Source of the DNA: Procambarus clarkii
Taxonomy: Eukaryota; Arthropoda; Malacostraca; Decapoda; Cambaridae
Assembly (NCBI RefSeq): GCF_040958095.1
Contig: NC_091216.1
Coordinates: 1,073,513-1,137,512, forward strand
DNA length: 64,000 nt
Direction: 5' to 3'
How positions within the stretch are numbered: the stretch's first letter is position 1; each line of letters opens with the position of its first letter. Of this stretch, positions 17,784 to 47,453 are shown in pieces. Below the pieces are notes generated by a model. The model did no database searches. It worked only from the letters and a program-made list of their open reading frames with translations, and had not been told where the DNA came from. The position numbers were made by a program, and so were the translations under genes.

Positions 17784-18261
17784 CAACCCGTTCTCACACA
17801 AGACAGTACATATATGACTAGTGCTTAAAGTCAATATGTGGAATGTGATTTAGTACATATGTGATATATTCCCAGTTAACTTTTTTACCAAGGCTCAAAC
17901 TCTTCCTCACGTACCAATTTACGTCTCACAGTACTCGTCCATCAACGTAGATAGCTGAATAGTCGTGATTGGTTCAATTATAACGAAAATTGTAGTTTTC
18001 AGGTCCCACATGGGTTGTGAAATTCACCTACTATTGTCCATGCTCTTATAATATTACAGATCAGCTACATCCTATTGAAGGCTCGTAGTTTTGTTTTGAG
18101 AAATATTAGTTGTTCTTAGTAAATTATAATAAGCACAATAAATTATTACATAGAATAAGTGCTTCACCAATCAATATTATATACCATAGTTTGTGCTTTA
18201 GAAATCTTTAAAGAATGTTTTGTAGGAACGCTAACAGAAAACGATGTTATGTTGGAATGTA

Positions 18262-19305
18262 TATAGGGCAAACTACTGCAAACAGGATGGTATGGTGTGG
18301 ATTATTGGAAACTATAGGATTAGTATAGGGTCCACTACCACCTGTTAGGTGGGTAAGGGGTCCAATAACACCCGCAGGATGAGTATGGGGGTCACATCCA
18401 CCCACAGGAATGGTATGGGGATCACTTCCACCCACAGGAAGGGTATGGGATCCAATACCATCCACTGGATGTGTATTGCGTCCACTACCACCGACAGGAT
18501 GGGTATGGGCTCACAACCACCCACAGGATAGGTATGGGGTCCAATACCACCCACAGGATGAGTATGGGGTCCACTATAACCCACAGGATGGGTATGGGGC
18601 TCCAACCACCCACAGAATAAGTATGGGGTACAATAACACCCACTGGATATGTATGGCATCCATTGCCCCCACAGGATGACTATAGGGTACAGTATCGCCC
18701 ACAGGATTAGTATATAGGGTTCACTGCCGCCCACAGAGTCGGTATGGGGTCCACCGCCACCCACAGGGTCGGTATGGGGTCCACTACCGCCCACAGGGTC
18801 GCTATGAAGTCAACTACCGTCCACAGGGTCGGTAGGGGTCCACTACCGCCCACAGGGTCGGCAGGGGGTCCACTGCCACCCACTGGGTCGGTAGGGGGTC
18901 CACTGCCGCCCACAGGATCGATAGGGGGTCCACTGCCGCCCACAGGGTCGATATGGGGGGGGGGGGTCCACTACCGCCCACAGGATCGATAGGGGGTCCA
19001 CTGCCGCCCACAGGGTCGGTAGGGGGTCCACTGCCGCCCACACGTTCGGTAGGGGTCCACTGCCGCCCACAGGGTCGGTAGGGGGTCCACTGCCGCCCAC
19101 AGGATCGATAGGGGGTCCACTGCCGCCCACAGGGTCGATAGGGGGTCCCTTACCGCCCACAGGGTCTCTATGAAGTCAACTACCGCCCATAGTGTTTGTA
19201 TAGTGTCCACTATCGCCCATAGTGTTATTATGGGGTCCACTACCCCTCATAGGGTCGGTATGGGGGTCCATTACTACCCACAGGGTGTGTCTGGGGTCTA
19301 TTTTG
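18262..19305. repeat. Subterminal ~31-bp minisatellite in the left TIR
   Basis: About 33 tandem units resemble GGGTCCACTGCCGCCCACAG plus GGTCGGTAG. Units nearer the end read CACAGGATGGGTATGGGGTCC and are more diverged; units further in are nearly identical. Mirror-image copies lie at about 45945-46975, and part is repeated at 20747-21290. Subterminal repeats are common transposase-binding regions in DNA transposons; that role is inference here. Open frames across it are artefacts. Confidence 0.85.
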
Positions 19306-45469: not shown

Positions 45470-47453
45470 TGTGTCTTGAGTCTACCAGTACTTGGCCTAC
45501 AGTTACCAGATCTGATTTACAGAAACTAGTGAACTATGGAGATAAGATTGTTAATAATATACTTTTTTTGAGATTCATATGACTTGCAGCTTAAAAACCA
45601 ACCTTATTTTAAAATAGTACACTAAAGTACATAGCAAATTGCGAAATTCGTAGTTTTTTAACTACTTTAAAGCTAAATTCTCAAGCTTTGAAAATAAGCA
45701 CAATTTGCTATTTTAAGCGGAATCTGGCAACTCTGATTTAGCATGTAAACATTGACTTGCATTCACAATGTAGTTATTTATTTTTCAACAATTTAAAACG
45801 AGTTATGAAAATACACACATTGGTACATTATTGCAAAGGCACTATACTATATATATATATATATATAAATTGTTGCAAGTCGAGCAACAAATATTTTACA
45901 TTGAACAACAAATGAGATTGGAAAAGCAGTATTGCCAAAATAGACCCCAGACACACCCTGTGGGTAGTAATGGACCCCCATACCGACCCTATGAGGGGTA
46001 GTGGACCCCATAATAACACTATGGGCGATAGTGGACACTATACAAACACTATGGGCGGTAGTTGACTTCATAGAGACCCTGTGGGCGGTAAGGGACCCCC
46101 TATCGACCCTGTGGGCGGCAGTGGACCCCCTATCGATCCTGTGGGCGGCAGTGGACCCCCTACCGACCCTGTGGGCGGCAGTGGACCCCTACCGAACGTG
46201 TGGGCGGCAGTGGACCCCCTACCGACCCTGTGGGCGGCAGTGGACCCCCTATCGATCCTGTGGGCGGTAGTGGACCCCCCCCATATCGACCCTGTGGGCG
46301 GCAGTGGACCCCCTATCGATCCTGTGGGCGGCAGTGGACCCCCTACCGACCCAGTGGGTGGCAGTGGACCCCCTGCCGACCCTGTGGGCGGTAGTGGACC
46401 CCTACCGACCCTGTGGACGGTAGTTGACTTCATAGCGACCCAGTGGGCGGTAGTGGACCCCATACCGACCCTGTGGGTGGCGGTGGACTCCATACCGACT
46501 CTGTGGGCGGCAGTGAACCCTATATACTAATCCTGTGGGCGATACTGTACCCTATAGTCATCCTGTGGGGGCAATGGATGCCATACATATCCAGTGGGTG
46601 TTATTGTACCCCATACTTATTCTGTGGGTGGTTGGAGCCCCATACCCATCCTGTGGGTTATAGTGGACCCCATACTCATCCTGTGGGTGGTATTGGACCC
46701 CATACCTATCCTGTGGGTGGTTGTGAGCCCATACCCATCCTGTCGGTGGTAGTGGACGCAATACACATCCAGTGGATGGTATTGGATCCCATACCCTTCC
46801 TGTGGGTGGAAGTGATCCCCATACCATTCCTGTGGGTGGATGTGACCCCCATACTCATCCTGCGGGTGTTATTGGACCCCTTACCCACCTAACAGGTGGT
46901 AGTGGACCCTATACTAATCCTATAGTTTCCAATAATCCACACCATACCATCCTGTTTGCAGTAGTTTACCCTATATACATTCCAACATAACATCGTTTTC
47001 TGTTAGCGTTCCTACAAAACATTCTTTAAAGATTTCTAAAGCACAAACTATAGTATATAATATTGATTGGTGAAGCACTTATTCTATGTAATAATTTATT
47101 GTGCTTATTATAATTTACTAAGAACAACTAATATTTCTCAAAACAAAACTACGAGCCTTCAATAGGATGTAGCTGATCTGTAATATTATAAGAGCATGGA
47201 CAATAGTAGGTGAATTTCACAACCCATGTGGGACCTGAAAACTACAATTTTCGTTATAATTGAACCAATCACGACTATTCAGCTATCTACGTTGATGGAC
47301 GAGTACTGTGAGACGTAAATTGGTACGTGAGGAAGAGTTTGAGCCTTGGTAAAAAAGTTAACTGGGAATATATCACATATGTACTAAATCACATTCCACA
47401 TATTGACTTTAAGCACTAGTCATATATGTACTGTCTTGTGTGAGAACGGGTTG
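45346..47453 (-). repeat. Right terminal inverted repeat
   Basis: Reverse complement of 17784-19967. It contains exon 1 of the second gene (45469-45367), a short TA tract (45850-45867 against ~97 bases on the left), and the ~31-bp minisatellite. Compared with the left copy it has two extra bases in exon 1 that join the upstream ATG at 45469 to the MDLPSTSN frame. Confidence 0.93.

What the first reader, a model, noticed from the sequence alone, without database searches (positions are those of the whole stretch)
17784..47453. Giant (29.7 kb) KDZ-superfamily transposon in a crustacean-like satellite array
Seen: perfect terminal inversion, a 7-bp duplication TATAACC, satellite register restored on removal, and a spliced gene with KDZ transposase motifs. 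Known: KDZ elements are DNA transposons described from fungi, algae and some animals including fish (Zisupton, for which I recall 8-bp duplications). Inference: this is an unusually large, recent and possibly complete animal member.
Basis: partly seen in the sequence, partly recalled or inferred. Interest (0 to 1): 0.92.

Follow-up and report, generated by a model that had tools for sequence, protein, structure and literature searches.

The report
Giant jumping gene in crustacean genome
This is an unusually large and recently mobile DNA transposon of the KDZ group in what looks like a crustacean genome; it is one of many near-identical copies with very long mirror-image ends, which makes it a striking new variant of a known kind rather than a new kind of element.

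Summary
Window 17784-47453 is a 29,670-bp element with CA...TG ends, a perfect 1,179-bp terminal inversion (arms about 2.1 kb in all) and a 7-bp duplication, TATAACC. Removing it restores a 674-bp satellite. A 15-exon gene (23590-30061, 870 aa, open) matches Pfam KDZ (5.5e-28) and CxC3 (4.4e-15).

The 4.03-Gb host genome holds 331 ends within 2 mismatches over 41 bp. In 39 facing pairs examined (38 others of 11.6-31.9 kb, plus this one), 19 have 7-bp and 9 have 8-bp duplications, 11 neither or unclear. So stagger varies within one family, bridging the 7 bp published for Kyakuja and 8 bp for Zisupton. Three of five copies with every exon are open. Copies that lost most or all of the gene keep ends and duplications; the three measured have arms of 3-7 kb, the right arm being also present, inverted, on the left: a Foldback/Galileo-like architecture on a KDZ transposase.

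Most likely mechanism: cut-and-paste by the KDZ transposase, with arm-switching repair (inferred) producing gene-less derivatives. Giant KDZ elements were known from algae; an animal family with kilobase arms, mixed duplications and a recent burst seems new. Tandem-array insertion is enriched (17 of 28 vs 8 of 40 random).

The parts
17784..47453 (+). whole element, 29,670 bp, CAACCCGTTCTCAC...GTGAGAACGGGTTG
17777..17783 (.). left target-site duplication TATAACC
47454..47460 (.). right target-site duplication TATAACC
17784..19967 (+). left terminal inverted repeat; first 1,179 bp identical to the right arm
45346..47453 (-). right terminal inverted repeat
18323..19298 (+). 30-bp tandem repeat (about 32 copies) inside the left arm
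45943..46889 (-). same 30-bp tandem repeat (about 31 copies) inside the right arm
18759..20743 (+). first copy of a tandem duplication, 99.6% identical
20743..22734 (+). second copy of the tandem duplication
23590..30061 (+). KDZ transposase gene, 15 exons, 870 aa: 23590-23788, 24033-24155, 24334-24483, 24644-24841, 25186-25290, 25446-25675, 25881-26059, 26419-26512, 26770-27102, 27317-27434, 27670-27761, 28605-28812, 28946-29116, 29397-29581, 29834-30061; splice sites chosen by eye, no RNA evidence
   Evidence: Pfam
41033..41338 (+). LINE-type reverse-transcriptase fragment (RVT_1 E 1.1e-7) carried inside the element; its region aligns in all seven copies read over it
43191..43388 (-). 66-aa Cys-cluster peptide, possible exon of a second gene; no Pfam match
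9030..17783 (+). 674-bp satellite array, left of the insertion
47454..62126 (+). 674-bp satellite array, right of the insertion

Best explanation
A complete, potentially autonomous, cut-and-paste DNA transposon of the KDZ (Kyakuja-Dileera-Zisupton) superfamily, belonging to a recently expanded family of giant elements in a (probably crustacean) genome. The 870-aa KDZ/CxC3 protein is inferred to bind the conserved outer ends and perhaps the repeats inside the arms, excise the element and join it to a target cut with a 7- or 8-base stagger. Shown: boundaries, target duplications, restored empty satellite sites, the open spliced reading frame, many near-identical copies, and copies without the gene that also bear duplications (so a transposase acting in trans on the ends is the simplest reading). 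Inferred: the catalytic steps, and that gaps left by excision are repaired with switching between the two kilobase arms, so that the right arm is copied over the gene; this would yield gene-less derivatives with arms of 3-7 kb.
For: Perfect 1,179-bp terminal inversion and TATAACC on both sides. Satellite register restored, and 35 empty sites in the window. KDZ E 5.5e-28 and CxC3 E 4.4e-15. 331 genomic ends at up to 2 mismatches over 41 bp, controls 0 and 0. Of 39 facing pairs, 19 have 7-bp and 9 have 8-bp duplications; of these 28, 11 lie outside tandem arrays (7 with 7 bp, 4 with 8 bp). Among 1,482 mismatched left/right combinations 2 reach 7 bp and none 8, and those 2 are cross-pairings of one duplicated locus. 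Removing the element restores the same satellite at C35:4851829 (98.0% over 596 columns) and on C7 (92.9%). Of five copies with all 15 exons, three are open (window, C12, L047; the last two end one codon earlier) and two have a premature stop. Copies lacking most or all of the gene keep ends and duplications. Arm length is 2.1-2.2 kb in the window, C6a, C12 and C2, but 5.5 kb in C26, about 7 kb in C6b and 3.1 kb in C14s, the last two at 91% with gaps. In 38 pairs, 10 have two inverted right-arm markers and no listed KDZ hit, 7 have one marker and a KDZ hit, none has two markers with a KDZ hit (from cut lists). Exon 9 is conserved in at least two other KDZ families of the genome (60-76% aa).
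Against: No RNA, no observed transposition, no excision footprint. Exons are not less diverged than introns among six copies compared with the window (0.34-0.69% vs 0.21-0.44%), and the few coding changes give only weak signs of constraint, so activity of this very protein is not shown. 9 of 39 pairs have no duplication and 2 are ambiguous; 17 of the 28 duplications lie in tandem arrays, where a shared 7-8 bp is weaker evidence. A search for an empty site at a non-satellite locus did not complete. C2 has lost exons 5-9 yet keeps short arms, so loss of the gene is not always coupled to arm growth. The mechanism of arm expansion is inferred from structure only.
Confidence: 0.92

Rival explanations
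1. The element is a non-autonomous passenger: the KDZ gene is a captured or dying gene and the family is moved by another transposase, for example that of a sister KDZ family.
For: Copies without the gene are common. At least two other KDZ families exist in the genome. A sister element with the same first 23 end bases, but an arm only 86% similar, sits inside exon 13 of one copy. Exons are not slower than introns among copies.
Against: The gene lies between the ends in the long copies, is open in 3 of 5 copies with all exons, and carries the domain for which 7-8 bp duplications are published.
Confidence: 0.12
2. The long arms and the gene-less derivatives are products of ectopic recombination or gene conversion between copies, not of transposition-coupled repair.
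For: Ends are homogeneous across the genome (printed identity 100% over 517 bp in 40 of 41 listed matches, self included). Some pairs have no duplication (9 of 39) and one (L055/L056) has flanks that are a perfect 300-bp palindrome.
Against: The four gene-poor copies whose flanks were read (C26, C14s, C6b and the L009/L010 copy) have 8-, 7-, 7- and 8-bp duplications, which recombination between different sites would not leave; but three of these four sites are in tandem arrays, and recombination inside an element would keep them.
Confidence: 0.25
3. Enrichment in tandem arrays reflects survival, not targeting: insertions in arrays are harmless and arrays may multiply the insertion.
For: Two C7 copies share identical flanks (300 of 300 bp on both sides) and nearly the same length (24,156 and 24,159 bp), as expected from duplication of the array. 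The genome is already rich in arrays (8 of 40 random positions).
Against: 17 of 28 duplication-bearing sites lie in arrays vs 8 of 40 random (Fisher p 0.0009; p 0.0017 after dropping the duplicated locus). This shows an excess, not its cause, and the sample is small.
Confidence: 0.6

Closest known systems
Zisupton (fish and other eukaryotes; Bohne et al. 2012, known here only through passages of PMC12730594, PMC12477816 and PMC9297572; the paper itself was not read)
   Same: KDZ transposase, several exons, terminal inverted repeats, 8-bp duplications in 9 of 39 pairs.
   Different: Most clear duplications here are 7 bp; arms of 2-7 kb with 30-bp internal repeats; about 25 kb length.
Kyakuja (fungi; PMC12730594, section 3.2.1 read)
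   Same: CA..TG termini and 7-bp duplications.
   Different: The Kyakuja families there are reported without terminal inverted repeats and with a TET/JBP gene; here arms are kilobases long, and no TET/JBP match appeared in the ten internal ORFs scanned.
Giant KDZ elements of Ectocarpus (up to 30.3 kb) and Chlamydomonas (31.7 kb, active) (PMC12477816, passages read)
   Same: Size, nested unrelated repeats fixed among copies, copies with a dead transposase gene presumably moved in trans.
   Different: Algal; no animal case of this size turned up in the searches made (listings).
Cryptococcus KDZ1 (PMC12810828, passage read)
   Same: KDZ plus Cys-cluster (CxC1 there, CxC3 here), TIRs, 8-bp duplication.
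   Different: About 11 kb with 241-bp TIRs.
Galileo / Foldback-like elements (P superfamily, Drosophila; PMC3573991, passages read)
   Same: Long internally repetitive arms, 7-bp duplications, longest arms only in copies lacking the transposase gene, arms growing by recruiting adjacent sequence.
   Different: Different transposase superfamily; longest arms 1.26 kb in D. mojavensis against 2-7 kb here.

Membership tests
KDZ superfamily | KDZ transposase domain (PF18758) | tested here: met
   E 5.5e-28, 98.6 bits over a 26.6-bit cut-off, profile 3-217 of 217
KDZ superfamily | KDZ-associated Cys cluster (CxC1/2/3) | tested here: met
   CxC3 E 4.4e-15, above cut-off
KDZ superfamily | intact catalytic residues of the transposase core | not tested
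   no solved relative at E up to 1; no structure was predicted
Zisupton | 8-bp target-site duplications | tested here: inconclusive
   9 of 39 pairs 8 bp, 19 of 39 7 bp, 2 ambiguous, 9 none
Zisupton | terminal inverted repeats | tested here: met
Zisupton or Kyakuja or Dileera clade | position in the transposase tree | not testable with these tools
   no reference KDZ proteins were available
Kyakuja | 7-bp duplications and CA..TG termini | tested here: inconclusive
   ends CAACCC..GGGTTG fit; 19 of 39 pairs are 7 bp but 9 of 39 are 8 bp
Kyakuja | absence of terminal inverted repeats | tested here: not met
   arms of 2.1 kb or more
[quoted passage not shown]
   30-bp unit repeated about 32 times inside each arm of the window copy; arms 2.1-7 kb in seven copies
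Galileo / P superfamily | P-type transposase | tested here: not met
   only KDZ and CxC3 reach Pfam cut-offs in the predicted protein

The most novel reading that the evidence does not exclude
A KDZ transposase whose cutting stagger is not fixed (7 or 8 bases in one family), which prefers tandem arrays as targets, and whose gene-less foldback derivatives are generated systematically by arm switching during repair, so that one family of giant elements is at present spreading and restructuring satellite regions of an animal genome, possibly with a second, zinc-cluster protein encoded on the opposite strand.
Probability: 0.3. Interest if true: 0.7.

Novelty: new variant of a known kind. Interest (0 to 1): 0.55.

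Why it matters
KDZ elements are little-studied cut-and-paste transposons, and no solved structure of a relative was found by sequence. This family gives a very young set of copies with clean boundaries, three open transposase genes among the five complete ones checked, and natural gene-less substrates, so end recognition, stagger choice and repair can be tested. It also shows an architecture known from Drosophila Foldback/Galileo elements on a different transposase, and it raises the question how elements of about 25 kb with kilobase inverted arms remain mobile in an animal genome.

Tried and rejected
Assembly artefact: rejected, because ends, duplications and arms recur at dozens of places.

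Polinton, Starship, Teratorn or virus-derived element: no supporting gene seen. Only KDZ and CxC3 reach Pfam cut-offs in the transposase; of ten internal ORFs scanned only a LINE RT fragment reached its cut-off (other internal ORFs were not scanned). A pattern scan of IMG/VR with exon 9 matched nothing.

Second gene on the minus strand (Cys-cluster peptide 43191-43388, Gln-rich exon-like ORF 40647-41060): not settled. The peptide is 100% identical in 150 of 150 scored places, but only the best 150 of 274 candidates were scored and the family differs by only about 0.3-0.7%, so identity is weak evidence. The Gln-rich ORF has a 1-bp gap in 5 of 7 compared copies; it lies in the T-rich stretch before the presumed exon and does not shift its frame. 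The phases of the two pieces do not fit directly, so more exons would be needed.

Purifying selection on the transposase within the burst: not shown. In one search the printed codon comparison was spoiled by stop codons dropped before aligning; it was redone column by column, and only ORF state, splice sites and exon/intron divergence are used.

DNA hairpin at the extreme end: not more stable than shuffles (z 0.65). Rfam: only a 5S rRNA in the window. tRNA: none.

Lone ends: from the place list (cut at about 100 of 331) facing pairs were picked by eye; lone and same-direction ends were dropped before the counts. Four single ends fetched (L105-L108) were not analysed.

Caveats: the satellite reference was cut from the right flank of the window, so the window's own restored-site match is partly a self-match; the C35 and C7 sites are independent of it. 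Two of the 40 random regions (L123, L133) contain N and were kept.

The paper search was badly posed and its 15 listed papers were unrelated.

Full report
What is there. The window (G000:C67:1073513-1137512 of a 4,027,284,227-base assembly in 2,308 contigs) holds a 674-bp satellite array interrupted at 17784-47453. The interruption starts CAACCCGTTCTCAC and ends GTGAGAACGGGTTG. Its outer 1,179 bases are perfectly inverted. Allowing gaps, the arms run 17784-19967 and 45346-47453, and each contains about 32 copies of a 30-bp repeat. TATAACC flanks it on both sides. The satellite is in register once the insert and one TATAACC are removed (681-bp alignment of 17103-17783 with 47454-48134), and the uninterrupted junction sequence occurs 35 times in the window at up to 3 mismatches (0 expected). 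Inside, 18759-20743 is tandemly duplicated (99.6%), which adds 2 kb to this copy.

The gene. By eye I joined 15 exons on the + strand, 23590-30061, with AG/GT borders at the introns, to an open 870-aa frame. Pfam gives KDZ (E 5.5e-28, residues 377-590, whole profile) and CxC3 (E 4.4e-15, residues 227-329); nothing else reaches its cut-off. No solved structure resembles it by sequence.

The family. The first 41 bases, with at most 2 mismatches, occur 171 + 160 times in the genome, and the reversed control 0 + 0 times. At two ends per element that is roughly 165 elements, or about 4 Mb (0.1% of the genome; my estimate). From the listed part of those places (about 100 of 331) I picked 38 facing pairs of 11,570-31,912 bp, median 23,902, and read their flanks. 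With the window this makes 39 pairs: 19 with a 7-bp duplication, 9 with 8 bp, 2 ambiguous in dinucleotide runs, 9 with none. Outside tandem arrays both lengths also occur: 7 pairs with 7 bp and 4 with 8 bp. Pairing left and right flanks of different loci gave a 7-bp match in 2 of 1,482 combinations and no 8-bp match; both are cross-pairings of L021 and L069, whose flanks are identical over 300 bp on each side and which are probably one insertion that was duplicated. Two of the no-duplication loci (L085, L087) likewise share flanks, and L055/L056 lies in a perfect 300-bp palindrome of flanking DNA. Over regions without tandem arrays the window differs from C12, C2, C6a, C26, L045, L046, L047 and L048 by 0.3-0.7%, gaps counted; the values for C14s (6.5%) and C6b (1.0%) are higher, in my view because paralogous pieces are mixed in. 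The family is therefore young.

Gene state. Of eleven copies or 10-kb parts of copies looked at, the window included, five have all exons (window, C6a, C12, L045, L047). Three of these are open (window, C12, L047; the last two end one codon earlier); C6a and L045 each have one premature stop besides. Differences among the five are few (0-5 synonymous, 1-8 non-synonymous; pN below pS in 9 of 10 comparisons), and exons are not less diverged than introns, so recent purifying selection is not demonstrated. Over a longer time the protein sequence is conserved: exon 9 is 73-76% identical to one other KDZ family of this genome (L110, L111, L112, L114) and 60-66% to another (L109, which has a stop, and L113), with the cores of the motifs kept; no rate test was made on these. 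The KDZ profile search found 379 candidate places, of which 150 were scored; none of 14 control genomes had a match.

Foldback derivatives. C2 lacks exons 5-9 and part of 4; C26 keeps only exons 13-15; C14s and C6b lack all 15; L046 is interrupted in exon 13; and in the 10 kb of the C26:16254850 copy that was read (L048) no exon was found. C26, C14s, C6b and the C26:16254850 copy have duplications of 8, 7, 7 and 8 bp (all but C14s in tandem arrays), so they appear to have moved as units, with transposase acting in trans. Arms are longer in the three of these read whole: 5.5 kb (C26), about 7 kb (C6b) and 3.1 kb (C14s), against 2.1-2.2 kb in the window, C6a, C12 and C2. The reason is that a right-arm segment, marked by a 66-aa peptide at window 43191-43388, is also present inverted on the left. 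In the 38 pairs, 10 (13.9-22.3 kb) have two inverted markers and no listed KDZ hit, 7 (25.0-28.2 kb) have one marker and a KDZ hit, and none has two markers plus KDZ; 7 have only a KDZ hit, 8 one marker only, 6 neither. The lists behind this were cut (marker 150 of 274 candidates scored; KDZ 52 of 3,570 and 150 of 379), so absences are weak. C2 shows that gene loss can occur without arm growth. Galileo in Drosophila shows the same rule, the longest arms only in copies without the transposase gene (PMC3573991, passages). I infer arm-switching during gap repair; this is not shown.

Targets. Reconstructed empty sites lie inside tandem arrays (Tandem Repeats Finder across the junction, or the 674-bp satellite) in 17 of 28 duplication-bearing loci and in 8 of 40 random positions on the same contigs (Fisher p 0.0009; 16 of 27 and p 0.0017 without the duplicated locus; TRF alone 13 of 28 vs 7 of 40, p 0.015; all 39 pairs 19 of 39 vs 8 of 40, p 0.009). 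This satellite was hit in the window, on C7 and on C35. Preference and survival cannot be told apart here.

Comparison. KDZ membership is met by domain. Published duplication lengths are 8 bp for Zisupton and, in fungal Kyakuja with CA..TG ends and no inverted repeats, 7 bp (PMC12730594, section 3.2.1 and passages). This family has CA..TG ends, long inverted repeats and both lengths; I could not place it in a tree. Giant KDZ elements are known from Ectocarpus (to 30.3 kb, with nested repeats fixed among copies) and Chlamydomonas (31.7 kb, seen to move) (PMC12477816, passages). Cryptococcus KDZ1 is about 11 kb with 241-bp TIRs (PMC12810828, passages). A review of giant transposons does not mention Zisupton (0 occurrences, PMC6431247, passages). 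Multi-exon Zisupton genes with a recent burst are known in Pristionchus nematodes, where no target duplications could be found (PMC9297572, passages). In arthropods I saw only a mention of Zisupton in the wasp Copidosoma (PMC6327564, passages). Searches for Zisupton with crustacean or crayfish, KDZ with crustacean, and Zisupton with '7 bp TSDs' listed no paper that reports this family by title or abstract; the library holds open-licence papers only.

Host. The Anti-LPS-SCYG family (recalled as crustacean and horseshoe-crab) has 25 hits in the genome and none in 14 control genomes. The window's left end carries a five-gene histone cluster and a 5S rRNA gene. Telomere-like ACCTA runs occur in the element. 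I take a crustacean as likely; the species is unknown.

Check. Verdict: observation confirmed, interpretation supported with refinements; new variant of a known kind.

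Noticed in passing
window 840-5802: A five-gene histone cluster: H2A (-) 840-1211, H2B (+) 1433-1804, H3 (-) ending at 2723, H4 (+) 3542-3853, H1 (-) 5245-5802.
   Followed up: partly
window 6342-6460: A 5S rRNA gene (Rfam 114.6 bits) next to the histone cluster, i.e. linked 5S and histone genes.
   Followed up: no
window 8500-8999 and 62127-62626: Two runs of exactly 500 N (assembly gaps); beyond the second gap the satellite is inverted.
   Followed up: no
window 43191-43388 (-): A Cys-cluster peptide (66 aa) 100% identical in 150 of 150 scored genomic places (274 candidates) and present in all eight copies whose relevant part was read; possible second element gene.
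   Followed up: partly
L046 2733-1875: A sister element with the same first 23 end bases but an arm only 86% similar is inserted in exon 13 of another KDZ copy.
   Followed up: partly
L055/L056 (C3:47849669-47870689): The element's two 300-bp flanks are perfect reverse complements of each other: a large palindrome centred on the element, or an assembly fold-back.
   Followed up: no
C7:762255-786413 and C7:827043-851198: Two copies of 24,159 and 24,156 bp with identical satellite flanks (300 of 300 bp on both sides), suggesting that a satellite segment with the transposon in it was duplicated.
   Followed up: partly
C14:45871183-45895133 and C14:46684501-46702780: Two copies with identical flanks (300 of 300 bp on both sides), no target duplication, and different lengths (23,951 and 18,280 bp): probably a segmental duplication with later change inside.
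   Followed up: no
L049/L050 (C1:21726205): The right flank of this copy begins with a diverged inner piece of the same terminal arm (93% to bases 110-515), so two elements abut.
   Followed up: no
window 35208-37841: Large internal arrays (141-bp unit, seven copies at 99%, then 63/103-bp units) inside the element that align less well among copies than the rest.
   Followed up: no
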